DNA of 9,699 bases from a bacterium (GTDB lineage: Bacteria; T1Sed10-126). A program made the position numbers and the translations under genes. Positions 1-9,699 of the stretch are shown here, one piece after another; position 1 is the first letter of the stretch, and each line of letters opens with the position of its first letter. Location of the stretch: positions 1 through 9,699 of the forward strand of contig PWOD01000046.1 in NCBI GenBank assembly GCA_003557545.1, read 5' to 3'. The notes under the pieces were generated by a model. The model searched no databases. It was not told where the DNA came from and worked only from the letters and a program-made list of their open reading frames with translations.

Positions 1-487
1 GCTCCAGCTCCACACCCGTACAGATTGTAAAATCTGCCGGCAGAGCACTGGTGGCATCCCAACGCCCCCCCATGCCGGCTTCCAACAGAAGATAATCCAC
101 ATCCCGCTCCGCCGCCAGCATGACTGTCACCATAAAGAAGATTTCAAACGGAGTTAATTCCGCCCCGAGCTGATCATACAGTTTAACCAACTGCCGGTTA
201 AGCTGATCGTCAGTCAATGGCCGGCCGTTGATTTTTATCCTCTCACCAGGACTCACAAGATGGGGTGAACTGCAGGAAACCGTTCTTTTCCCGACCTGTT
301 TCAACCCCTCCTCCAACAGATGGACAACCGTCCCCTTACCATTACTTCCTACCACCTGAACAACTTTAGCCCGGGGGAGTTGAAACCGCCCCAACTCAGT
401 TTTCACAGTAGTAAGTGAAGTTCTCATCGGACGGGAAGCCAGCTTGTCAAGCAACTGCTGAAGGGCCGGATATCTCTGTTCAGACAT
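1..487 (-). CDS. folC: FolC-type folylpolyglutamate/dihydrofolate synthase, N-terminal part (partial)
   Basis: This is the first 162 residues of a Mur-ligase-superfamily ATP-dependent synthetase, cut by the left edge. FolC adds glutamate to folates, and in many bacteria it also makes dihydrofolate. The P-loop is VVGSNGKGTV (residues 45-54; most FolC have GTNGKGS). CSSPHLVSPGERIKING follows at 72-88, then LTPFEIFFMVTVMLA (111-125) and LLLEAGMGGRWDATSAL (133-149), which corresponds to the family's E-x-GLGGRLDATN. These motifs in this order are diagnostic of FolC over MurC-F. ATG 487 is the only possible start because a TAA lies in frame just upstream; the SD is weak (GCGGT region). Being 12 nt behind the BMC-P trio, it is probably co-transcribed. 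The C-terminal domain cannot be assessed. Confidence 0.92.
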   Translation of the reverse strand, partial: MSEQRYPALQQLLDKLASRPMRTSLTTVKTELGRFQLPRAKVVQVVGSNGKGTVVHLLEEGLKQVGKRTVSCSSPHLVSPGERIKINGRPLTDDQLNRQLVKLYDQLGAELTPFEIFFMVTVMLAAERDVDYLLLEAGMGGRWDATSALPADFTICTGVELE

Positions 488-499
488 AAAAGTTACCGC

Positions 500-805
500 T
501 TACTCAGAATTTTTAAGTTTCTGATACCTTTCCCCGATATTAACCTGATCCACAATACCAATAATAAATCCACGAACCGGAGCACTATCATCTTCCAGAA
601 TCATCCGACTCGGTCCTCCATCATCAACTATCAGCACCTGATCACCAACGCCAGCGTCGATATTTTTATCAAGACACATATAGGGAATTCCAGTATATTC
701 ATCCGTCAGAGGATTGTAATCTTTGACCAGCAACATCCGCAAAGGCTTAAGACTATCGTGCCGCTGGGTAGCCCAGGTTCGACCTACTACTCTACCTATT
801 CTCAT
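500..805 (-). CDS. EutN/CcmL family BMC-P protein 3 (divergent)
   Basis: This 101-aa protein is the most divergent of the three. The fold signature remains: MRIGRVVGRTWATQ, LRMLLVKDYNP, a DAGVGDQVLIVDDGGPSR core (50-67) and FIIGIVDQVNIG. It has a longer loop (NPLTDEYTGIPYM, 31-43), the AVGAG motif is replaced by KNIDAG, and the C-terminal tail is basic. GGAGG lies 7 nt before the ATG. The divergence of the three copies suggests separate positions or partners rather than recent duplication. It ends 12 nt before the folC-like gene, and the two are in the same reading frame separated by a TAA stop. Confidence 0.88.
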   Translation of the reverse strand: MRIGRVVGRTWATQRHDSLKPLRMLLVKDYNPLTDEYTGIPYMCLDKNIDAGVGDQVLIVDDGGPSRMILEDDSAPVRGFIIGIVDQVNIGERYQKLKNSE

Positions 806-1077
806 GAACTCGCCTCCATATCAACACCATCAATAATCCCACAGATCGCGGCATCCGACGGCGGCAGTTTATCCCCGGTGGCAACAGCTGCTTCACGCGA
901 TTCAACATAGAAAATAAACTCGCCCGCACCTGAACCGACAGCATCAGTACAAACAATCGGGTCGCCCGCATCATTATTATCCCAATCGGTCGGCTGCACG
1001 ACTAACAACCGTTCACCTTTGAATGTGTGATATTTTTGAGAACAGACAACCCTCCCGATAACTCGACCCGGTTTCAT
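802..1077 (-). CDS. EutN/CcmL family BMC-P protein 2
   Basis: This 91-aa member of the same family reads MKPGRVIGRVVCSQK, GERLLVVQPTDWD, TDAVGSGAGEFIFYVESREA and ICGIIDGVDM. The core glycine motif (residues 45-53) is kept, but the GS-AR segment after it, well kept in copy 1, is changed to ESREA. Cys12 and Cys43 are specific to this copy among the three. It ends soon after the last strand and lacks the short tail of the other two. An AAGGAG lies 11 nt before the ATG, inside the end of copy 1. The stop overlaps the start of copy 3 by ATGA, so the two are very likely made together. Confidence 0.92.
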   Translation of the reverse strand: MKPGRVIGRVVCSQKYHTFKGERLLVVQPTDWDNNDAGDPIVCTDAVGSGAGEFIFYVESREAAVATGDKLPPSDAAICGIIDGVDMEASS

Positions 1078-1079
1078 GC

Positions 1080-1382
1080 CTATCCGGACTCCTTAGACTT
1101 GTCATAAACCGGATCGCCATCGATATCAACCAGGTCAACTATCGCCATTATCACACAATCAGTCGGACGATTTTCTGTTAACTCTGTCTGCCGGGCCGTA
1201 CTTCCCGTGGCGAACAGCACCAGCTCCCCCACCCCGGCACCAACTGCATCAACACCAACCAGTACTCCACCGTTCGGTTCCATATCAAGATTAACCGGCT
1301 GCAGTACCATAAACTTTCTTCCTCTAACTTTTTCCTCTTTACGGGTTGCCACTACATTACCTACAACACGTGCAAATTTCAT
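1080..1382 (-). CDS. EutN/CcmL family BMC-P (microcompartment vertex) protein 1
   Basis: This 100-aa protein has the single-domain EutN/CcmL fold of bacterial microcompartment vertex proteins, which form pentamers closing the corners of the shell. It is the most canonical of the three: MKFARVVGNVVATRK at the start, GRKFMVLQPVNLD, then VDAVGAGVGELVLFATGSTAR (residues 44-64) and a C-terminal IVDLVDID. All of these are normal for the family, and the length is typical. It is first of three consecutive genes, separated from the next by 2 bp. No BMC-H or BMC-T shell gene and no encapsulated enzyme lies in the window, so a microcompartment role is inferred from the family only. Confidence 0.93.
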   Translation of the reverse strand: MKFARVVGNVVATRKEEKVRGRKFMVLQPVNLDMEPNGGVLVGVDAVGAGVGELVLFATGSTARQTELTENRPTDCVIMAIVDLVDIDGDPVYDKSKESG

Positions 1383-1386
1383 AGTA

Positions 1387-1394
1387 CACCTCCT
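1387..1394 (-). promoter_or_regulatory. Strong ribosome-binding site before the BMC-P trio
   Basis: AGGAGGTG lies four bases before the ATG at 1382 and is the strongest SD in the left part of the window. The 66-bp gap that holds it also has a T7 tract without a stem and a lone TAAAAT; neither is convincing as terminator or promoter. Confidence 0.7.
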
Positions 1395-1448
1395 GAATTC
1401 TTTACTTTTATTTTACCCCGAATCGGTAGAAAAAAACAGGCTGCTAAT

Positions 1449-1862
1449 CTAAAAATCTTCCAGATACCCGGATTGACCCGACCGGGATCCTTTTATTTTC
1501 CCTCTGAACCAGTCCTTAACCCACTCCCTTATCTGGCGGCGACTGACCGGTATCAATAATAAAAATCCAAAAATATCAGTTAATAGCCCCGGGGTGAGAA
1601 GCACAAAACCGGCGATTAAAATCAGTGCCCCCTCTATAAGAGAATTCCCCGGTAAACGTCCCTGGGACAGCTGAAATTTAATCTCCAGAACAATAGCCAG
1701 GCCCTGGGTCTTGGCAAAAAATGCCCCCAACCCTGCTGTTATAACCACCAACAAAACAGTATTTACCGCTCCGATCAACTGTCCCAGTTTAATTAATAGA
1801 TAAAGTTCTATGAGGGGAACTAAAAAAAACATTAAAAACAGTTTAAACAGCATCTTCCTCAC
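1449..1862 (-). CDS. fxsA: FxsA-family membrane protein
   Basis: This 137-aa inner-membrane protein is of the FxsA family, first known because its overproduction in E. coli relieves F-plasmid exclusion of phage T7. Its cellular role is otherwise unclear. Family features are FLVPLIELYLLIKLGQLIG in the first helix, TAGLGAFFAKTQG at the end of the second, and a third hydrophobic stretch with LLTPGLLTDIFGFLLLIP followed by a basic amphipathic tail. The start is taken as GTG 1862 (GGAG four bases upstream); the ATG at 1853, preceded by GAGG, would shorten it by three residues. It lies 30 bp after the protease gene and 66 bp before the BMC-P genes. No link to hydrogenase function is known to me, and its presence here may be incidental. 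Confidence 0.9.
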   Translation of the reverse strand: MRKMLFKLFLMFFLVPLIELYLLIKLGQLIGAVNTVLLVVITAGLGAFFAKTQGLAIVLEIKFQLSQGRLPGNSLIEGALILIAGFVLLTPGLLTDIFGFLLLIPVSRRQIREWVKDWFRGKIKGSRSGQSGYLEDF

Positions 1863-1892: not shown

Positions 1893-2402
1893 CTATCGAG
1901 CCGTCGAACAGCCCGAACCATCAGCCGCCGCTTTGAACAGGATCAAAAGCTTTTCCAGAGCCTGCTCGGTAATCTCCGATAGTTTTTCCCCCACCGCTGT
2001 ATTCTCCGGGGTCAACAATAGAAATTTTATTTCAGCCCCGGTACTTTCCTGCAGTTGTTTGGCCAGCAAACCGGGAGAATAGCTGTGAGTGCTGAATCCA
2101 TCAAGACTTATCTGGTCCAGATCAAGCAGAGATATTTCGCCCGGTTTTGCTCCGTTATTGAGCGTATCTACAATTAATATTAAATCCGGTGAGAACCGCT
2201 CGGCCGGGGCCAGAAAGTTTTCCGGGGCAGTCCCACAATCAACCGGCTTGATTCTTCCACAATCAGAAATATCAGCCGCTAATTTTTCGGCAAAAATCGA
2301 GCCAAAACCATCGTCCGAACGTAACCGCTGACCTAACCCCATGAGAAAAATCCGGCCGCTGGCTAACCAGTAAAGCAGTTTATGATTTATCGGTGAGTCC
2401 AC
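1893..2402 (-). CDS. hycI: Hydrogenase maturation protease, HycI/HyaD family
   Basis: This 169-aa cytoplasmic endopeptidase removes the C-terminal tail of the hydrogenase large subunit after Ni insertion. The sequence shows LMGLGQRLRSDDGFG (D31), a VDCGTAPEN motif, LILIVDTLNNGAKPGEI (D79) and FSTHSYSP (H106). D31, D79 and H106 align with the Asp16, Asp62 and His90 that bind metal in E. coli HycI. TAPEN and STH also resemble HycI more than the group 1 proteases. The start is GTG at 2402, 6 nt after the ferredoxin stop, with AAGGAG upstream. The position of the first motif (residues 22-34) is about 15 residues later than in HycI, so a shorter form starting at Met21 is conceivable. The likely substrate is the large subunit at the head of this cluster. 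Confidence 0.93.
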   Translation of the reverse strand: MDSPINHKLLYWLASGRIFLMGLGQRLRSDDGFGSIFAEKLAADISDCGRIKPVDCGTAPENFLAPAERFSPDLILIVDTLNNGAKPGEISLLDLDQISLDGFSTHSYSPGLLAKQLQESTGAEIKFLLLTPENTAVGEKLSEITEQALEKLLILFKAAADGSGCSTAR

Positions 2403-2408
2403 GAAAAC

Positions 2409-3065
2409 TTACTCCTTATCAAAATCTGGTGGGCTTTCAACCTCATGATGTGCCTCAAACAGTGACGCATCACGACGGCAGGCGGGACATAATATCCCCA
2501 TTCTCCGATCCCGATCGATCTCATCACGAATCTTTGATGAGATCTCCTGGCGATCAATCAGTTGCAACTCCGCCAGCTTGGTCAAATATAAGGTGGGATT
2601 ACTGTAGGCTTTATGACCAAGTTTTTTCGCCACCCATACTATATGCTCATAAGCGGAAATTATCGAGTTACAACAGGCACAAAAACACAGCTCTTTTTCC
2701 ACCTCACTGGTCTGTTCTTCACGTTTATCGGTGGACAGATCATAGCGTTTACTATATTCGATCCCATCTCCGGTGGTACAGAGCTCGACACATTGACCAC
2801 AAAAAATACATTCATCAAAATGTCTTACCATCCGCCTAAAAGGTCGGTCGACCGCCTCAACATCAATTGTCTCAATCGCTCCGGCGGGACAGACGTTCTC
2901 ACATCCCCCACAGGCCACACAGCCATCTTCCTGGTATTCCGGTGCGCCTCGGTATTCATCTACTATACTGGCCGGTTCTGCGGGAAATTTAGTCGTATAA
3001 GGCCCCCGGACAAGGGCGATGATCGCCTCTTTTAACTCCCGGAGCTTTGGTAATGGCAGACCCAT
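2409..3065 (-). CDS. HycF/HyfH/NuoI-like 2x[4Fe-4S] ferredoxin subunit with extra C-terminal Cys domain
   Basis: This 218-aa electron-transfer subunit should carry electrons between the donor side and the hydrogenase small subunit. The N-terminal amphipathic stretch with EYRGAPEY (37-44) is typical of NuoI/HycF proteins that sit on the membrane arm. Two CxxCxxCxxxC sites follow at C49-C59 (CVACGGCENVCP) and C86-C96 (CIFCGQCVELC); the second lacks the usual Pro after its last Cys. A further domain has C127-x-C129-x2-C132 (CFCACC, with C131 between) and CPAC at C193 and C196. E. coli HycF has the same arrangement (CNCRVC then CPEC), so this is closer to the formate hydrogenlyase type than to the short archaeal MbhN. 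Which metal the last site binds is not visible. The start lies 2 bp after the mrpG stop with a GGAG upstream. Confidence 0.93.
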   Translation of the reverse strand: MGLPLPKLRELKEAIIALVRGPYTTKFPAEPASIVDEYRGAPEYQEDGCVACGGCENVCPAGAIETIDVEAVDRPFRRMVRHFDECIFCGQCVELCTTGDGIEYSKRYDLSTDKREEQTSEVEKELCFCACCNSIISAYEHIVWVAKKLGHKAYSNPTLYLTKLAELQLIDRQEISSKIRDEIDRDRRMGILCPACRRDASLFEAHHEVESPPDFDKE

Positions 3066-3067
3066 TT

Positions 3068-3412
3068 TTATCTCTTCTCCCGAATGTCATCAAGATCCTC
3101 TGCATACTGGTCAACCACTGTTTGATCGGCCAGCTCGACTCCCGAAAGATAGGCGGCCCGGGAGATCGCATGCGCTGCCGTTGGAGTCGTAATAACTATA
3201 AAAACCATGGCGATCAATGATTTAATCCCTATTGCTCCAAACCCCAGGTAAACTACTACCCCCAGCAGAATAAAACAGGTGCCTATAGTAACACATTTAG
3301 TCGCGGCCTGAACCCGATTAAAAACATCGGGAAAACGCACCAGTCCAAAACAACCAAAAAAATCAAAAATTAATCCGATGAAAACTATAATCAATCCTGC
3401 CGTTTCACTCAT
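3068..3412 (-). CDS. mrpG: Mrp-type antiporter subunit G (MnhG/MbhC-like)
   Basis: This 114-aa subunit has three TM helices. The signature GLVRFPDVFNRVQAATKC is near residues 23-40, and the family ending TTPTAAHAISRAAYLSG follows the last helix. A short acidic tail closes the protein. The start at ATG 3412 is preferred because it is preceded by AAGGGAAGAG at a normal distance and gives the usual MrpG N-terminus. The frame also runs up to an ATG at 3466, but that would add 18 residues from inside mrpF. It overlaps the mrpF stop by 8 bp, and the next gene begins 2 bp after its stop. Confidence 0.94.
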   Translation of the reverse strand: MSETAGLIIVFIGLIFDFFGCFGLVRFPDVFNRVQAATKCVTIGTCFILLGVVVYLGFGAIGIKSLIAMVFIVITTPTAAHAISRAAYLSGVELADQTVVDQYAEDLDDIREKR

Positions 3413-3668
3413 CAAAACTCTTCCCTTCAAGATGTTTGGCCAGGGCCAGACTGGCAATAAATCCAACCAGTGCCCAGGAGATCCCTACTATCATATAAAA
3501 ATCCTGACCGGTATCAATCGACAACACGCCACAAAATCCAACAATTACCACACCAAGTATATCGACCGCTACAATTCTGTCAGGCACCGATGGACCACGC
3601 CCGATCCGGTACAAACAAAGAAAAATACAGGCAAGTAAGATGAGGTAAAAAAAGTCAAATACAGTCAT
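3405..3668 (-). CDS. mrpF: Mrp-type antiporter subunit F (MnhF/MbhB-like)
   Basis: This 87-aa subunit has three TM helices. The family motif follows the first helix: YRIGRGPSVPDRIVAVD, with R24, P26, D30, R31 and D36. The second helix contains VVIVGFCGVLSIDTGQ and the third GISWALVGFIASLALAKHLEG. Length is typical for MrpF. It overlaps mrpE by ATGA upstream and mrpG by 8 bp downstream. A role in the E-F-G end of the membrane arm is known from Mrp and Mbh structures; the assignment here rests on the motif and on gene order. Confidence 0.94.
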   Translation of the reverse strand: MTVFDFFYLILLACIFLCLYRIGRGPSVPDRIVAVDILGVVIVGFCGVLSIDTGQDFYMIVGISWALVGFIASLALAKHLEGKSFDE

Positions 3669-4177
3669 TCAAAAATTCTCCTTAAAATTCGTTCAAACCG
3701 GCCGGCTATCATCTCAGTCGCCTCGTCAATATCAGTCGATTGAACATTTATCCAGTGGACATAAAGCAGCTTATTTTCCATATCAACATCGACCGTCAAC
3801 GTCCCCGGGGTAAGAGTTATTGAATTGGCCAGGGCGGTAATACCGGAGTTTGACTCCAGCGATGTTCGAATCTTAACAATTCCCGGTTTTATCGGTAAAC
3901 TGGGATGAATCGCTCTGTACATAACATCAATATTTGCCAGGAGACAATAATAACTAAAGACCGGTAAATAGATCAAAAACCAGAAATAACTGAGTGGATT
4001 AACCACCTTGCTATGTCGCTCAAAAAACAGTTCATCAAACAGCAAAGCGACAAACCCGGCAGCAAACAGACCGACAAAAATATTTAACCAGAAAACCTCC
4101 CCGGTGGCCGGGTCAAACGGCCAGGCCAGTAACGACCAGATAATATATGAGAAAAAGAAAACAATCAGTTTTCTCAT
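3665..4177 (-). CDS. mrpE: Mrp-type antiporter subunit E (MnhE/MbhA-like)
   Basis: This 170-aa protein is the Mrp E subunit. It has N-terminal membrane helices (about residues 3-22, 29-47 and 60-82) and a cytoplasmic C-terminal domain of about 90 residues. The signature is clear in the second half: a Pro-rich IKPGIVKIRTSL, then ALANSITLTPGTLTVDVD, then LLYVHWINV. The C-terminal helix is charged (ERILRRIFE). In Mrp and Mbh complexes subunits E, F and G sit together at the end of the membrane arm. The start at 4177 is chosen because it overlaps the mrpD stop by ATGA and has a strong SD. The longer frame from 4288 gives an N-terminus unlike the family. The stop overlaps the mrpF start. Confidence 0.95.
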   Translation of the reverse strand: MRKLIVFFFSYIIWSLLAWPFDPATGEVFWLNIFVGLFAAGFVALLFDELFFERHSKVVNPLSYFWFLIYLPVFSYYCLLANIDVMYRAIHPSLPIKPGIVKIRTSLESNSGITALANSITLTPGTLTVDVDMENKLLYVHWINVQSTDIDEATEMIAGRFERILRRIFE

Positions 4178-5694
4178 AAACCGACTCCTCCTATGTAGCC
4201 GGCGGCTCCCTGGAGTAGATCCAGGCTGGCCGGACTTAAAATCAACCGGTAAATTCCCGGCAGAATTAGAAAACTCAAAAAGATACAAAAGACCGCAAGA
4301 ATCAACATCGATACCCGCATAAAGATCGGGGCCGTAAGATCACTCTCATATATTTTTTTATCCAACCGGCACTTATCCCAGAAAGCATACCGTTGAACCT
4401 TCATAAATGATGCCAGGGTTAAAACCGACCCGATCACAGCCAGCAGCGCATAAAACGGTTGTCCGGCCAGAACAGCCGCAAAAATTATCATCAGCTTGCT
4501 CCAAAAACCGTTAAACGGGGGAATCCCCGAGATCGATAAAGAACCGATCATCGAAGTCACAGCCGTAACTGGCATTTTCCTGGCCAGCCCGCCCATTTTT
4601 TTTAGGGAGCGGGTCCCCGTAGCTGTCTCCAGCGCTCCTGAATTTAAAAACAGCAGTGATTTAAAAACCGCATGGTTAAACAGATGAAACAGACCGGCGA
4701 CCATCCCTAATCCGGTGCCCAGTCCTATCGCCATAACCACATACCCCATCTGACTGATGCTATGGTAGGCAAACAGCCGCTTGATATCCCACTGGTAAAG
4801 AGCCAGTAGCACACCGATGATCAGCGAAATTCCACCCACCACAAGCAACAGGTTGAGAAAATAGGGATCGTTTCCCAGGTCGAACAGGTTGAATCCCACC
4901 CGCAGCAGAGCATAAACCCCGAGAACCTTAATTACCACCCCGGATAACATGGCAGAAATTGGTGCCGGCGCGGAGGGATGAGCATCGGGCAGCCAGGCGT
5001 GAAAAGGGATCAATGCCGCTTTCAAAGAAAACCCCATCAGCAGTAATGAAAAGGCAAAATAAAGTGCCCTGTTCATTCCATATTCCTGGATAAACTGGGC
5101 CGCATAAGCAATGTTCAAAGTTCCGCTTACCAGGTAAATTATGATAACTCCCAAAAGAATCAGGGCCGAAGCGATCGCTCCCATTACCAAATATTTAAAG
5201 GCGGCTTCCAGCTCTTCAGCCTCCACACCAAAACTTACAAGAATATATGAGGAAACCGAGGCCAGCTCCAGAAAAACATAGAGATTGAATAAATCACCGG
5301 TCAGTAAAATTCCGTTCATCCCGGCCAGCATAAAAAGTATCAGGGCATAAAAATAACTTCTCGAACTATATTTTTTCATGTAGTTAACCGAGTAAAGAAT
5401 CACCGTGAAACTTATCATATTAACAATTATCAGCATCAAAACCGTGAGACTATCCAGATAAATATTTATCCCCATGGGCAGGGCCCAGCCACCCATGTTC
5501 AAATTAAAACTGCGAATCACCTGTTGACCATCAAAATAACCCGCACCGATCAATATCAAAGACAACATAAACAGGGTTAAAGTAACAGCAACCGATCCCA
5601 TCTCACTAACAAAAGGACGCCGTCGGGCCAGTAAAATATAGAGAAAACCAAATCCCAGGGGCAATATAACAAATAATACCGGTAAATTGCTCAT
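4174..5694 (-). CDS. mrpD: Mrp-type antiporter subunit D (NuoN/NuoM-like, MbhH-like)
   Basis: This 506-aa antiporter-like subunit has about 14 TM helices and is the second large ion-translocating module of the complex. Unlike the NuoL-like partner, it keeps the full set of charged residues: TM5 Glu in LYVFLELASVSSY (E143), TM7 Lys in GFSLKAALIPFHAWLPDAH (K225), TM8 Lys in GVVIKVLGVY (K256) and TM12 Lys in PPFNGFWSK (K400). Also present are the broken-helix histidines in FAYHSISQMGY (H311) and GLFHLFNHAVFKS (H337, H341). Length and order match MrpD and Pyrococcus MbhH, the subunit facing the hydrogenase module in Mbh. The ATG overlaps the mrpC stop and the stop overlaps the mrpE start, both as ATGA. 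I infer that it is functional because no key residue is missing. Confidence 0.96.
   Translation of the reverse strand: MSNLPVLFVILPLGFGFLYILLARRRPFVSEMGSVAVTLTLFMLSLILIGAGYFDGQQVIRSFNLNMGGWALPMGINIYLDSLTVLMLIIVNMISFTVILYSVNYMKKYSSRSYFYALILFMLAGMNGILLTGDLFNLYVFLELASVSSYILVSFGVEAEELEAAFKYLVMGAIASALILLGVIIIYLVSGTLNIAYAAQFIQEYGMNRALYFAFSLLLMGFSLKAALIPFHAWLPDAHPSAPAPISAMLSGVVIKVLGVYALLRVGFNLFDLGNDPYFLNLLLVVGGISLIIGVLLALYQWDIKRLFAYHSISQMGYVVMAIGLGTGLGMVAGLFHLFNHAVFKSLLFLNSGALETATGTRSLKKMGGLARKMPVTAVTSMIGSLSISGIPPFNGFWSKLMIIFAAVLAGQPFYALLAVIGSVLTLASFMKVQRYAFWDKCRLDKKIYESDLTAPIFMRVSMLILAVFCIFLSFLILPGIYRLILSPASLDLLQGAAGYIGGVGL
4185..4192 (-). promoter_or_regulatory. Ribosome-binding site that fixes the mrpE start
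   Basis: AGGAGGAG lies 7 nt before the ATG at 4177, inside the end of mrpD. It supports starting mrpE there rather than at the in-frame ATG at 4288, which would add 37 polar and basic residues translated from inside mrpD. Confidence 0.8.
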
Positions 5695-6038
5695 CCCCGC
5701 AGCCTCCTTATTTCACCAACATCAAAAGTTCCATATTTTTCATATAATCTAACAGCCAGTGCAACCACAAGAGCAGTTATACCGAAATTAATAACTATAG
5801 CTGTTAGCACCAGCACCTGCGGCAGGGGATCAACCGCCAGACCAACAAACTCCCCGATTTTTTGTCCTTCTTCCAGAATCGGGACTATCCCTCCCCGCTG
5901 ATAACTTACAAGCACAATAAATAGATGAACCGCATATTCCATAACAATCAATCCCATGATAATTTTGATCAGGTTCCGTTTGACCACAACCCCATAGAAA
6001 CCGATCAAAAATAACAACAGACAGAGACCATAAATCAT
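5691..6038 (-). CDS. mrpC: Mrp-type antiporter subunit C (NuoK/MnhC/MbhG-like)
   Basis: This 115-aa protein with three TM helices is homologous to complex I NuoK. It packs between antiporter-like modules and helps form the ion path. The family hallmark DPLPQVLVLTAIVINFG begins at D70. TM2 contains a membrane glutamate (E34 in IVMEYAVHL); NuoK has an essential TM2 glutamate, but by my alignment E34 is offset from it, so equivalence is uncertain. The loop between TM2 and TM3 (VPILEEGQKIGEFVGLAVD) is longer than in NuoK, as is usual for MrpC. The start overlaps the mrpB stop and the stop overlaps the mrpD start, both as ATGA, which indicates translational coupling. Confidence 0.95.
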   Translation of the reverse strand: MIYGLCLLLFLIGFYGVVVKRNLIKIIMGLIVMEYAVHLFIVLVSYQRGGIVPILEEGQKIGEFVGLAVDPLPQVLVLTAIVINFGITALVVALAVRLYEKYGTFDVGEIRRLRG

Positions 6039-6487
6039 TCTTCGCCCGCCCCCTCTTCTAACCTGAACAGGGAGAGATATAAAAACATGGCAAAGATCGC
6101 CGCACTAACCTTAAAACCAATAACAACATTTGAAAAAACTATTGTTCCCCCGCTCTGTAATCTGAACGCTTCACCCGGCGGTAAAAAATTAGCAAAAAAG
6201 TAATTGCCAAAAACCATCCCCAGGAACCCGATGATTAAAAATAAAAGTATCGATAGACTGTCAACCACAGAGGCCTGTTTCAAAGAAAAAAGTCTAAAAG
6301 TAAACTCTTTGCCGGCGGCCAGAGTAATCAGTATAAATGAACAGGCGATTATTACCCCGCCGGGAAAACCGCCACCCGGTGTCACATGGCCGTAAAGCAT
6401 AACGTACAACCCGAAAATAAAAATAAAACTGTTGATCCAGCGGGTTACCGTCTGCACTATCGGGGACATTCCACCCTCAGGTTTCAT
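6035..6487 (-). CDS. mrpB: Mrp-type antiporter subunit B (MnhB/MbhF-like)
   Basis: This is a small integral membrane subunit (150 aa, about four TM helices) of the Mrp-like arm. Residues 15-55 carry the family signature: a first helix ending in YGHVTPGGGFPGG followed by a second hydrophobic segment. GFLGMVFGNYFFAN and a Gly-rich GGTIVFSNVVIGFKV precede the last helix, and the C-terminus is acidic. Length is normal for MnhB. It overlaps the genes on both sides by ATGA. The first ATG at 6487 has a modest GGTGA upstream. A second in-frame ATG at 6469 (Met7) is preceded by GAGGGTGGA and would also leave a normal protein, so the start is uncertain by six codons. Confidence 0.95.
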   Translation of the reverse strand: MKPEGGMSPIVQTVTRWINSFIFIFGLYVMLYGHVTPGGGFPGGVIIACSFILITLAAGKEFTFRLFSLKQASVVDSLSILLFLIIGFLGMVFGNYFFANFLPPGEAFRLQSGGTIVFSNVVIGFKVSAAIFAMFLYLSLFRLEEGAGEE

Positions 6488-7062
6488 GATTTTTTCACCA
6501 TTCCCTCAACAGAATCACTGTCCCCCCGCAAACGCCCTTTCTTACGTAAAACAGTCCAGACCCCAATCAACGCAACAAACAGCACAGTGACCTCCCCGAT
6601 CGTGTCAAACACCCGGTAATCAAGCAGGATGGCGGTCACAACATTGGCTGCTCCGGTTTCAGCCAGCGCCTCACCTAAATAATGCAATGAGGGGTTTCCA
6701 GCCAAACCGGTATGAGCCCGAAGACCGAACACCGGTAAGACCTCAACCATATGCAGGCTGAACAGAAATAAAATCAACAAAGAGCTAACCGCTATGGTCA
6801 TACCAAACTGTGGTTTACCCTCCTGGATTGTCGTCACGTCACGACTGATCGTCGCCCGGATTAAAATCAACAACACCAGCACTTCAACCACAACCTGGGT
6901 AATTGCCAGGTCCGGAGCACCGAGGAAAAGAAACGCTATGGAGGTACCGATTCCCACGGCAGCAAGGGCTACTACAGCAGCCAGCGTATCCCTTGTTTCC
7001 AGCGCCACAAGTGCGGCGATTATCATAAATATTAGCAGTATAATAATAATGTACGGAGTCAT
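6484..7062 (-). CDS. MrpA C-terminal-type subunit (DUF4040 plus MbhE-like domain; MbhD-MbhE-like fusion)
   Basis: This 192-aa membrane protein corresponds to the C-terminal region of MrpA, encoded separately here. In archaeal Mbh hydrogenases this region is itself two genes (mbhD and mbhE); here both parts are in one chain. Residues 1-72 form the DUF4040 part: TM helices with LETRDTLAAVVALAAVG and APDLAITQVVVE, whose acidic residues D51 and E60 lie in membrane segments. A TM helix follows near 88-108. Residues 126-175 form the MbhE-like part, with TGAANVVTAILLDYR and FDTIGEVTVLF (D148, D153, E157). In the Mrp and Mbh families this region is thought to take part in Na+ or H+ movement. The start at ATG 7062 is the only standard start before the conserved first helix, but its nearest SD (CAGGAG) is 12 nt away. 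The stop overlaps the mrpB start by ATGA. Confidence 0.92.
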   Translation of the reverse strand: MTPYIIIILLIFMIIAALVALETRDTLAAVVALAAVGIGTSIAFLFLGAPDLAITQVVVEVLVLLILIRATISRDVTTIQEGKPQFGMTIAVSSLLILFLFSLHMVEVLPVFGLRAHTGLAGNPSLHYLGEALAETGAANVVTAILLDYRVFDTIGEVTVLFVALIGVWTVLRKKGRLRGDSDSVEGMVKKS

Positions 7063-7130
7063 TAGCAGAAAAAACTCCTGACTGTAAATTTGACTGTTTG
7101 ACCCAAACTACAACCTCCTGAACAGAGCAT
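7062..7130 (-). other. Possible 22-codon leader ORF in the 69-bp intergenic gap
   Basis: The largest gap inside the hydrogenase cluster contains a short open frame starting at ATG 7130 and ending in TAA at 7064-7062. The stop shares its last base with the next gene's ATG (TAATG). An internal TTG at 7106-7104 in the same frame is preceded by a strong AGGAGG (7119-7114) at 7-nt spacing, giving a 14-residue alternative. A second CAGGAG lies 12 nt before the ATG at 7062, farther than ideal. This could be a coupling leader peptide, or two ribosome-binding sites left after an ancestral mrpA was split. The encoded peptide resembles nothing I recognise, and chance is a real alternative. Confidence 0.22.
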
Positions 7131-7131
7131 T

Positions 7132-9012
7132 CTACCAGATCCCCAAAAAAACAAACAGATAGACAACCAGTCCCACCAGGGCCCAGGTTACATAGGTGCT
7201 GAGAACTCCAGAGTGCAGGTTGCTAAAATAGGAGGCAACACCAACGCTGAAACGTGATCCCAGCTCATAAATATCGAAAAATCCCCGCGATTGATAGCCA
7301 TATAACGAAGAGATTACCGGTAACCGTTGAATCGTTCGATAAAACTCAGTCCCCGGAAAATAGGCCCTTTCAGGATCATGTTGCGAACCGCCGACCCAGG
7401 TCGGAACTCTCCGCAGACGTGAAAAAAGCCCGCTGATCCAGTAGACAAATAACCCGATCAGTAACGCTATCACCAGTAAAACTGTCGCGCCACCGGCATG
7501 CCAGTCCCGATATAGTTCCATGCCCACCAGCCGCGGCAGCTCGCCGATGGCAGAACCGACATACAAAAACAGTGGATAGATATAGGCAATACCAAAAACC
7601 AGACAAATACCGGCCAGAATTAACACCGGGATAGTCCGAAAATAACTCTGTTCCTTGACCTTCTCCAGTGGAATTCGACAGCTGGGAGTCGACCAAAAAA
7701 TCGAATGGATAATTTTGATAAAGGACGCCAGGGTTAATGCGCTGCCAAACATCGCAGCCGTCAACCAGACTATCCAGCTCAGCCCCCCTGACTCACCCAC
7801 CTGGATAAGCCCCCGGTAGATCAGCCATTTGGAAACAAACCCATTTAATGGTGGAACTCCGGATATAGCCGCGGAAGCGATTAACATCGACAGAAAAGTC
7901 AACGGCATAAATTTACCCAATCCACCCAGTTTGTCCAGCTCATCCGTCCCGGTCGCCGTCTCCACATTCCCTGCACAGAGAAACAGACAGGATTTATAAA
8001 TTGCGTTGTTTAACATATGAAATAATCCCCCGGCCATTCCTATCGGTGTCAGAGTTGCTATTCCAAGGATCATATAACCGACCTGACTGACGGCGTGATA
8101 ACCCAGCAGCCGGCGAATTCGGTGTTGGACCAGCGCCATCATCACCGCCCCGATAATTGTCACGGCACCAATCACCATCAAGTACGTTACCATCCAGGAA
8201 TCTTCCGGCATGACAAAAATTTTAGTGCAGATCCGGTAGAGAAAATAAATCCCCAGCAGTTTATCCAGGGAGCCGGGTAAAAAAGCAGCCGTGACCGGCC
8301 GAGCATCGCTGCTGGCTGCGGGCACCCAGGTATGAAGCGGCATCGCACCGGCCTTCGAAAAAGCAGCCATAGTGAGCAGAATAAAAGCCAGCACTGCATA
8401 CGGACCGGTAACCGGTTGTTCAATCCATAAGCCCATATTACCACTGAAAATCTGGGTTGTATCTGCCAGCTGTTCTGGTAGATTAAGCAAAAACAACAGG
8501 GCAAATCCAAGGATTAACAAAGCGTCAGCCCCACCAACTATAAGAATTGTTTTTTTAGCCGGGCCGGAGGCCGCCTCTCCATCCAGACCGATCATCATGT
8601 ACAGAGTTAATCCCAAAAATCCCCAGAAGCTTAAAAAAGCGATCATATTAGCAGAAAAAACAACCCCGGCCGCTGCCCCTAAAGTCCAGAGAAAATAGGC
8701 ATAAAACTCATTTAATCGGGATTTACCGGCTTCAGAACCAAAGGCGTAGATAAGATTGATCGCACCAAAAAACAGGATGAAAAAGAAAATAAACGAGGCC
8801 AGACCGTCGGAACTAAAAAACCCGGAAAACAGCTGCTGCTCTGGAGCTATCCCCAGCAACCCGGCCATGATAAATAGCGCGACCAGGGTGACCGAAGCAA
8901 TGATCTCTCGCAAAAATTTTATCTCAGTCGGGATAACTAAGACCAGCAACCCGGTAAAAAACGGTAATATTATTGAAATTAACAGGAAATATTCAATCCC
9001 ACTCAACATCAT
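7132..9012 (-). CDS. NuoL/HyfB/MrpA-like proton-conducting antiporter-type membrane subunit
   Basis: This 626-aa polytopic protein belongs to the antiporter-like family (NuoL, MrpA N-terminal, HyfB) and should form one ion-translocating module of the membrane arm. Key residues are present: the TM7 Lys in FSKAGAMPLHTW (K220), the TM8 Lys in LDKLLGIY (K251), HAVSQVGY near 306-313, FHMLNNAIYKS near 331-341, and the TM12 Lys in PPLNGFVSK (K395). The usual TM5 Glu is missing: the segment reads FLSFWGFLGLTLY, with Gly at 131 where WE is usual. After the 14-helix core, the last 120 residues hold TWVGG, an FY-T segment and an FDIYE segment, then a final TM helix, as in long hydrogenase/complex I L-type subunits. 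It is much shorter than full MrpA because the MrpA C-terminal domains are in the next gene. It starts at ATGATG overlapping the hydrogenase stop; the first ATG makes the ATGA overlap. Family is certain; NuoL-like versus MrpA-like naming is a matter of choice. Confidence 0.94.
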   Translation of the reverse strand: MMLSGIEYFLLISIILPFFTGLLVLVIPTEIKFLREIIASVTLVALFIMAGLLGIAPEQQLFSGFFSSDGLASFIFFFILFFGAINLIYAFGSEAGKSRLNEFYAYFLWTLGAAAGVVFSANMIAFLSFWGFLGLTLYMMIGLDGEAASGPAKKTILIVGGADALLILGFALLFLLNLPEQLADTTQIFSGNMGLWIEQPVTGPYAVLAFILLTMAAFSKAGAMPLHTWVPAASSDARPVTAAFLPGSLDKLLGIYFLYRICTKIFVMPEDSWMVTYLMVIGAVTIIGAVMMALVQHRIRRLLGYHAVSQVGYMILGIATLTPIGMAGGLFHMLNNAIYKSCLFLCAGNVETATGTDELDKLGGLGKFMPLTFLSMLIASAAISGVPPLNGFVSKWLIYRGLIQVGESGGLSWIVWLTAAMFGSALTLASFIKIIHSIFWSTPSCRIPLEKVKEQSYFRTIPVLILAGICLVFGIAYIYPLFLYVGSAIGELPRLVGMELYRDWHAGGATVLLVIALLIGLFVYWISGLFSRLRRVPTWVGGSQHDPERAYFPGTEFYRTIQRLPVISSLYGYQSRGFFDIYELGSRFSVGVASYFSNLHSGVLSTYVTWALVGLVVYLFVFLGIW

Positions 9013-9699
9013 TTAATCAACTCTTCAGTTTTTTTATGAGATTTTTCCAATAACTCACGGGGAGTAATTAACCTTTCATCCCCACTCCTATCCCGCAGTC
9101 GTACCGATCGTTCCGTGCAGGAATAACAGGGATCAACCGCCGCCAGTGTCAACAGCACATCGGCGATCTCCTCCCCAATACAGGAGGCCTCAAAGGAGGG
9201 AACATTATTAAAGCTCGGCGCCCGGACCTTATGACGAATCGGACTGTTAGTTCCATCAGAGGCTACGTAATGAAATGTTTCCCCACGTGGCGCACCATAA
9301 ATTCCAATCCCTTCTCCCGCCGGGACATCACGTACCCCGGCATCAATCTCTCCTGCCGGAAGCTGCTGCAGGGCCTGCCTGATTATTTTGATCGACTCCA
9401 GGTTTTCCTTCAAACGAACCATCGTTTTCGCATAAACATCTCCACTCTGTTCAACTATCACATTCCAATCAACCCGATCATAAACACCGTGCGGATGATC
9501 TCGCCGAACATCGAGGTCATATCCCGACCCACGAGCCGTCGGGCCTAAAGTACAGTAATCACGTGCCTCCTGCTCAGTCAAAACTCCAACTCCCTTGAGC
9601 CGCGATTTAATCACCGGGTCGTCCTCGACCGCATGCAGCAGCATGAGACATTTTTCTTCTAATGGTTTCAGCATCTCCAGGACCCTGTCCTGCTTCTCC
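9009..9699 (-). CDS. Group 4 [NiFe] hydrogenase large (catalytic) subunit, C-terminal part (partial)
   Basis: This is the catalytic subunit of a membrane-bound energy-converting hydrogenase, which reduces protons to H2 or the reverse at a Ni-Fe centre. The reading frame is open through the right edge, so the N-terminus with the first Ni-binding CxxC is outside the window; the ATG at 9674 is internal. Visible family features are GPTARGSG and DVRRDHP, a PRGE motif followed by HYV and a basic PSF segment, and finally DPCYSCTER. The two Cys of that last motif (codons near 9128 and 9119) are Ni ligands. Their presence separates it from complex I NuoD, which has lost them. After DPCYSCTER come 32 residues ending in the stop, matching the removable tail of HycE-type large subunits; a HycI-like protease gene lies downstream in the cluster. 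The stop overlaps the next start (ATGA). The exact hydrogenase subgroup cannot be fixed from this fragment; a Mrp-linked (Mbh-like) type fits the neighbours. Confidence 0.95.
   Translation of the reverse strand, partial: EKQDRVLEMLKPLEEKCLMLLHAVEDDPVIKSRLKGVGVLTEQEARDYCTLGPTARGSGYDLDVRRDHPHGVYDRVDWNVIVEQSGDVYAKTMVRLKENLESIKIIRQALQQLPAGEIDAGVRDVPAGEGIGIYGAPRGETFHYVASDGTNSPIRHKVRAPSFNNVPSFEASCIGEEIADVLLTLAAVDPCYSCTERSVRLRDRSGDERLITPRELLEKSHKKTEELIK

What the first reader, a model, noticed from the sequence alone, without database searches (positions are those of the whole stretch)
500..1382. Three tandem, divergent BMC vertex proteins with no shell hexamer or cargo in view
Microcompartment loci usually have many BMC-H/BMC-T genes and one to three BMC-P genes together with cargo enzymes. 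Here three consecutive EutN/CcmL proteins stand alone, tightly coupled to each other, between a hydrogenase cluster with fxsA and a folC gene. They could be the vertex set of a compartment encoded elsewhere, or an EutN-only assembly with a separate role, perhaps linked to hydrogenase or folate chemistry. The link is inference from co-orientation only.
Basis: partly seen in the sequence, partly recalled or inferred. Interest (0 to 1): 0.6.

Follow-up and report, generated by a model that had tools for sequence, protein, structure and literature searches.

The report
Vertex genes of a scattered SPU microcompartment
Three neighbouring genes encode the corner proteins of a bacterial protein-shelled organelle whose wall proteins and enzymes, which probably break down sugar phosphates from DNA and nucleosides, lie elsewhere in the same genome; this scattered layout is a known pattern, seen here in two related genomes from an obscure soda-lake lineage.

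Summary
Three PF03319 (EutN/CcmL) genes lie head to tail at 500-805, 802-1077 and 1080-1382 (- strand), and they are the only PF03319 genes found in the genome. They are not an orphan assembly. The same genome carries a sugar-phosphate-utilisation (SPU) microcompartment locus on contig C83: BMC-H, CoA-acylating aldehyde dehydrogenase, RpiB, DeoC aldolase, a nucleoside transporter and EutJ. A PduS gene with a PduT-like BMC-T lies on C61. Neither place has a BMC-P gene. The one held relative, from the same family, has the same three-place layout. Compact SPU loci of Elusimicrobia hold orthologues of all three BMC-P genes beside the same enzymes, and the three window proteins fall into three separate clades, each next to the Elusimicrobia members. 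So this is the 'BMC-P triplet' described by Sutter et al. 2021, relocated to a satellite of an SPU compartment. The hydrogenase neighbourhood is incidental, since it lies elsewhere in the relative. The folC and fxsA neighbourhood is shared by the two genomes but seen nowhere else among the loci examined. Verdict: a new member of a known kind, of modest interest. The least explained point is that PduL, the usual CoA-recycling enzyme, was not found in either genome.

The parts
1080..1382 (-). BMC-P3, first gene of the triplet; closest to the HO-type vertex protein of 5v74/6mzx
   Evidence: PF03319 99.9 bits; PDB 5v74/6mzx chain E=1.4e-27; sister to P3 of the Elusimicrobia SPU locus L081 at 63% identity
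802..1077 (-). BMC-P2, second gene of the triplet
   Evidence: PF03319 87.1 bits; separate clade with L081 and L084 P2, forks 98/83 and 99/85
500..805 (-). BMC-P1, third and most divergent gene of the triplet
   Evidence: PF03319 62.8 bits; clade with L081 and L084 P1, fork 96/84
1383..1448 (-). 66-bp leader of the triplet between fxsA and P3, with ribosome-binding site AGGAGGTG; no sigma-70-like promoter found in it
   Evidence: sequence; promoter scan 6 found versus 3.0 expected over 1-2600, none in this gap
2..487 (-). folC, N-terminal 162 aa, cut by the contig end; 12 bp downstream of P1 and perhaps co-transcribed, not thought to be part of the compartment
   Evidence: TIGR01499 116.4 bits; same adjacency in G001
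1449..1862 (-). fxsA, membrane protein gene upstream of the triplet; context only
   Evidence: PF04186 113.9 bits; in G001 also upstream, but with a 747-codon ORF in between

Best explanation
The three genes encode the pentameric vertex proteins, one from each of three ancient BMC-P lineages, of a sugar-phosphate-utilisation (SPU) bacterial microcompartment. Its facet proteins (one BMC-H and one PduT-like tandem BMC-T) and its cargo are encoded at two other places in the same genome. Inferred working: a Na+-dependent nucleoside transporter brings in nucleosides; RpiB and DeoC handle the pentose and deoxyribose phosphates; inside the shell DeoC splits deoxyribose-5-phosphate into glyceraldehyde-3-phosphate and acetaldehyde; the CoA-acylating aldehyde dehydrogenase turns acetaldehyde into acetyl-CoA and makes NADH; PduS together with the cysteine-bearing BMC-T may pass those electrons out through the shell; BMC-P pentamers cap the twelve corners so that acetaldehyde does not leak. 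Shown: gene inventory, families, orthology of the three proteins to SPU-locus vertex proteins, and the same split layout in the only held relative. Inferred: that the parts assemble together, the pathway, the electron exit and the separate roles of the three pentamers.
For: The genome has exactly three PF03319 genes, all here, and PF00936 genes only at C83 (BMC-H) and C61 (tandem BMC-T), so the shell inventory is complementary across places. C83 holds DeoC (TIGR00126, 296 bits), RpiB (PF02502), CoA-acylating AldDH (PRK15398 family, 637 bits), BMC-H (EutM-like), EutJ and a nucleoside transporter. C61 holds PduS/RnfC-like plus BMC-T that keeps the PduT Fe-S cysteine (TVCPGKF against TICPGKF in 3pac). 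G001, same family, repeats all three places. Compact SPU loci in Elusimicrobia (L081, L084) carry BMC-H, P3, AldDH, BMC-T, RpiB, P2, P1, DeoC together (plus PduS and PduL in L081; L084 is cut by its contig end), with P2 then P1 in the same order as in the window. In the BMC-P tree the window proteins fall in three clades, each next to the Elusimicrobia members. In G029 the three BMC-P genes sit with RpiB and DeoC and PduL.
Against: No PduL (PF06130) was found in this genome or in G001, so the usual CoA-recycling step is not accounted for. Encapsulation peptides on AldDH and DeoC are plausible from conserved N-terminal extensions followed by a linker, but a hydrophobic-moment test against shuffles was not significant (P 0.08 to 0.22). 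Assembly into one shell is untested, and the two genomes are incomplete.
Confidence: 0.88

Rival explanations
1. An EutN-only assembly unrelated to a shell, working with the neighbouring hydrogenase or with folate metabolism.
For: Co-orientation; 12-bp spacing to folC in the window and 6-bp spacing in G001.
Against: BMC-H, BMC-T and SPU cargo exist in the same genome and lack any other vertex protein. In G001 the hydrogenase large subunit is on another contig. None of the other BMC-P loci screened, from several phyla, has folC or fxsA nearby.
Confidence: 0.03
2. A FRAG-type compartment of unknown function that merely shares a genome with an SPU enzyme cluster.
For: Shell genes scattered over several places and a BMC-P triplet characterise FRAG (PMC8217296); similar scattering occurs in G013, a one-contig genome with BMC genes at six places.
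Against: Here the BMC-H gene lies directly beside AldDH, RpiB and DeoC, which are the SPU signature enzymes, and the BMC-P proteins are closest to those of compact SPU loci.
Confidence: 0.07
3. Contig breakage or mis-binning: the triplet belongs to an ordinary compact locus that was split in assembly, or to another organism.
For: The genome is a 239-contig draft assembly and the window is a whole contig.
Against: The C83 and C61 places lie inside their contigs with unrelated genes on both sides, the triplet lies between folC and fxsA, and the same adjacencies (folC with the triplet, dnaE with PduS, the C83 cluster) recur in the separate genome G001 at about 56 to 97% protein identity.
Confidence: 0.02

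Closest known systems
SPU (sugar phosphate utilisation) bacterial microcompartment, Axen et al. 2014 (PMC4207490), Sutter et al. 2021 (PMC8217296)
   Same: DeoC-type aldolase (PF01791), RpiB (PF02502), CoA-acylating AldDH, BMC-H, PduS in some members; the compact SPU-like loci found here also hold the BMC-P triplet
   Different: Vertex genes and BMC-T are at separate places; no PduL found; no triosephosphate isomerase seen in the C83 cluster
BMC-P triplet (Sutter et al. 2021)
   Same: Three paralogues from three distinct clades in one genome
   Different: The triplet stands alone as a satellite in a folC/fxsA neighbourhood; I could not map it to the published clade colours, as the supplementary data were not available
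FRAG microcompartments (Sutter et al. 2021)
   Same: Shell genes scattered over several genomic places; BMC-P triplet
   Different: FRAG is grouped by shell composition with most genes remote from enzymes; here BMC-H is next to SPU enzymes
HO microcompartment of Haliangium ochraceum (5v74, 6mzx)
   Same: P3 is closest to the HO vertex protein among solved structures; HO loci also have the triplet (PMC8217296)
   Different: The only BMC-T here is PduT-like, whereas HO loci are described with double-stacked gated BMC-T proteins (PMC8217296)

Membership tests
BMC-P (PF03319) | Full-length PF03319 match over cut-off | tested here: met
   62.8, 87.1, 99.9 bits versus 25, positions 1-83 of 83
BMC-P (PF03319) | Forms pentamers at shell vertices | not testable with these tools
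   Needs purified protein or a cryo-EM shell
BMC-P triplet | Three paralogues from three separate clades that co-occur | tested here: met
   Window and most loci with three BMC-P give one member to each of three clades
SPU microcompartment | DeoC-type PF01791 aldolase and PF02502 RpiB together with BMC shell genes | tested here: met
   Both beside BMC-H on C83 and again in G001 C37
SPU microcompartment | CoA-acylating aldehyde dehydrogenase | tested here: met
   PRK15398 subfamily 637 bits versus cut-off 403; CTCEK motif with the expected catalytic cysteine
SPU microcompartment | PduL phosphotransacylase (usual metabolosome core enzyme; SPU was described in 2014 as having an incomplete core) | tested here: not met
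   No PF06130 match in either genome; a PF01515 phosphotransacetylase in two fragments on two contigs, in this genome only
[quoted passage not shown]
   BMC-H on C83, BMC-P on C84
[quoted passage not shown]
   First two parts met; no place in the genome has both domains, so strictly every place is satellite or satellite-like
FRAG microcompartment | Scattered shell genes of FRAG-type shell phylogeny | tested here: inconclusive
PduT-type BMC-T | Tandem BMC fold with the Fe-S-binding pore cysteine | tested here: met
   Two PF00936 domains; 3pac E=1.6e-50 and cysteine aligned; Fe-S binding itself not tested

The most novel reading that the evidence does not exclude
Keeping all vertex genes in a separate housekeeping-linked operon (fxsA, triplet, folC) uncouples capping of the shell from production of its cargo and facets, so that shell closure follows growth state and not substrate, in a compartment that works without PduL and disposes of electrons through PduS and BMC-T.
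Probability: 0.1. Interest if true: 0.55.

Novelty: new member of a known kind. Interest (0 to 1): 0.3.

Why it matters
It removes a seeming oddity (vertex proteins without a shell) and adds an SPU-type organelle to a very poorly known lineage: relative G001 is isolate T1Sed10_126, and a review lists phylum T1Sed10-126 as Candidatus Busufiota, with two genomes from hypersaline soda-lake sediment (PMC11382960). The small inventory of one BMC-H, one BMC-T and three BMC-P makes it a simple test case for why many shells need three kinds of pentamer. Surveys that demand BMC-H and BMC-P side by side could miss or mistype such compartments.

Tried and rejected
Encapsulation-peptide test by hydrophobic moment: no significant excess over shuffles. 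Promoter scan upstream of the triplet: nothing in the leader. dN/dS: synonymous rate could not be computed (saturated), so only codon-position counts are given. Hydrogenase link rejected by G001. Assignment to an SPU subtype or to published BMC-P colour clades was not possible because the supplementary data of PMC8217296 cannot be read here. Alcohol dehydrogenase as NADH sink: three Fe-ADH genes exist in each genome but none on the BMC contigs, so left open. Structure prediction was not run: the PF03319 matches already settle the fold, and a single chain would not show the oligomer.

Full report
Observation. The three ORFs at 500-805, 802-1077 and 1080-1382 (- strand) all match PF03319 over its full length, well above the curated cut-off. 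They overlap or nearly touch each other, and all have plausible ribosome-binding sites. A whole-genome search of the assembly in which the window lies (2.15 Mb, 239 contigs, 91.9% complete) finds no other PF03319 gene. The window is a whole contig, so what lies beyond it had to be sought elsewhere.

Rest of the shell. PF00936 is found at two other places. On C83 a single EutM-like BMC-H lies between EutJ and a CoA-acylating aldehyde dehydrogenase; next come a 99-aa protein without family, RpiB, a nucleoside transporter and a DeoC aldolase with a long N-terminal extension. On C61 a PduS/RnfC-like gene is followed by a tandem BMC-T whose closest solved relatives include PduT-type proteins (3pac, 3nwg, 3n79), with the Fe-S cysteine aligned. 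DeoC plus RpiB with a BMC shell marks the SPU microcompartment (PMC4207490, PMC8217296), proposed there to break down products of DNA degradation.

Relative. The only held genome of the same family, G001, has the same three places: folC, P1, P2, P3 and, after one extra 747-codon ORF, fxsA on C63; DeoC, NupC, RpiB, AldDH, BMC-H, EutJ on C37; dnaE with PduS and BMC-T on C95. Its PF03319 and PF00936 inventories are the same. This makes mis-binning and assembly breakage unlikely. The G001 contig corresponds to PWHN01000086.1, isolate T1Sed10_126. A review lists phylum T1Sed10-126 (Candidatus Busufiota) with two genomes of 2.15 to 2.2 Mb from hypersaline soda-lake sediment (PMC11382960). That the window comes from the second of these two is my inference from kinship and size.

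Orthology of the triplet. Elusimicrobia AUK228 (L081) carries in one cluster TIM, PduL, BMC-H, BMC-H, P3, AldDH, PduS, BMC-T, RpiB, RpiB, P2, P1, DeoC, BMC-H; UBA9639 (L084) is similar. In a tree of 91 BMC-P proteins the window's three fall in three clades, each next to these Elusimicrobia proteins (P1 fork 96/84; P2 98/83 and 99/85; P3 99/87), and the other genomes with three BMC-P mostly give one member to each clade. This agrees with the 'BMC-P triplet' of Sutter et al. With 97 columns for 91 rows many deeper forks are unresolved; the starred close groupings carry the argument.

Neighbourhood. The hydrogenase large subunit of G001 (79% identical) is on C104, far from the triplet, so the hydrogenase link is not kept. 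The folC and fxsA order is kept in the two genomes but in none of the other BMC-P loci screened. With two genomes this cannot separate a function from a shared location.

Mechanism and gaps. The pathway in the best explanation follows from the families. PduL was not found in either genome. A PF01515 phosphotransacetylase is present as two fragments on two contigs in this genome and was not found in G001, so where the acetyl-CoA goes is open. No alcohol dehydrogenase of PF00465 lies on the BMC contigs. PduS and the cysteine-bearing BMC-T are the likely route for electrons, as was suggested for GRM1 loci (PMC4207490). The N-terminal extensions of AldDH and DeoC are conserved between the two genomes, but a simple amphipathicity test does not reach significance.

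Verdict. The finding is real and is explained: the vertex set of an SPU microcompartment whose genes are dispersed. It is a new member of a known kind, with PduL absence and stable dispersal as the points worth keeping.

Noticed in passing
window 1893-9674: Group-4-like membrane hydrogenase and Mrp antiporter cluster: large subunit keeps the C-terminal DPCYSCTER motif, with a HycI-type protease and a NuoI/HycF-like ferredoxin subunit; the large subunit ORF runs up to the contig end.
   Followed up: partly
L007 6457-7893: DeoC carries a 250-residue N-terminal part with no Pfam match, also long in G001; it may hold an encapsulation peptide and an unnamed domain.
   Followed up: no
L007 10358-10657: 99-aa protein with an encapsulation-peptide-like start and an ITPEA motif shared with the N-terminus of the Elusimicrobia TIM (L081 5783-6685); no family match and not seen at the same place in G001.
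   Followed up: partly
L007 and L060: SPU cluster without PduL; PF06130 not found in either genome.
   Followed up: yes
L009 and L010 (C61): Very long ORF of repeated adhesin-like units (GLUG-like by eye) on the same contig as the BMC-T.
   Followed up: no
G013 (one-contig genome): BMC genes at six places in a single-contig genome: three BMC-P, two BMC-H and one PduS/BMC-T pair, all apart; an example of full dispersal.
   Followed up: partly
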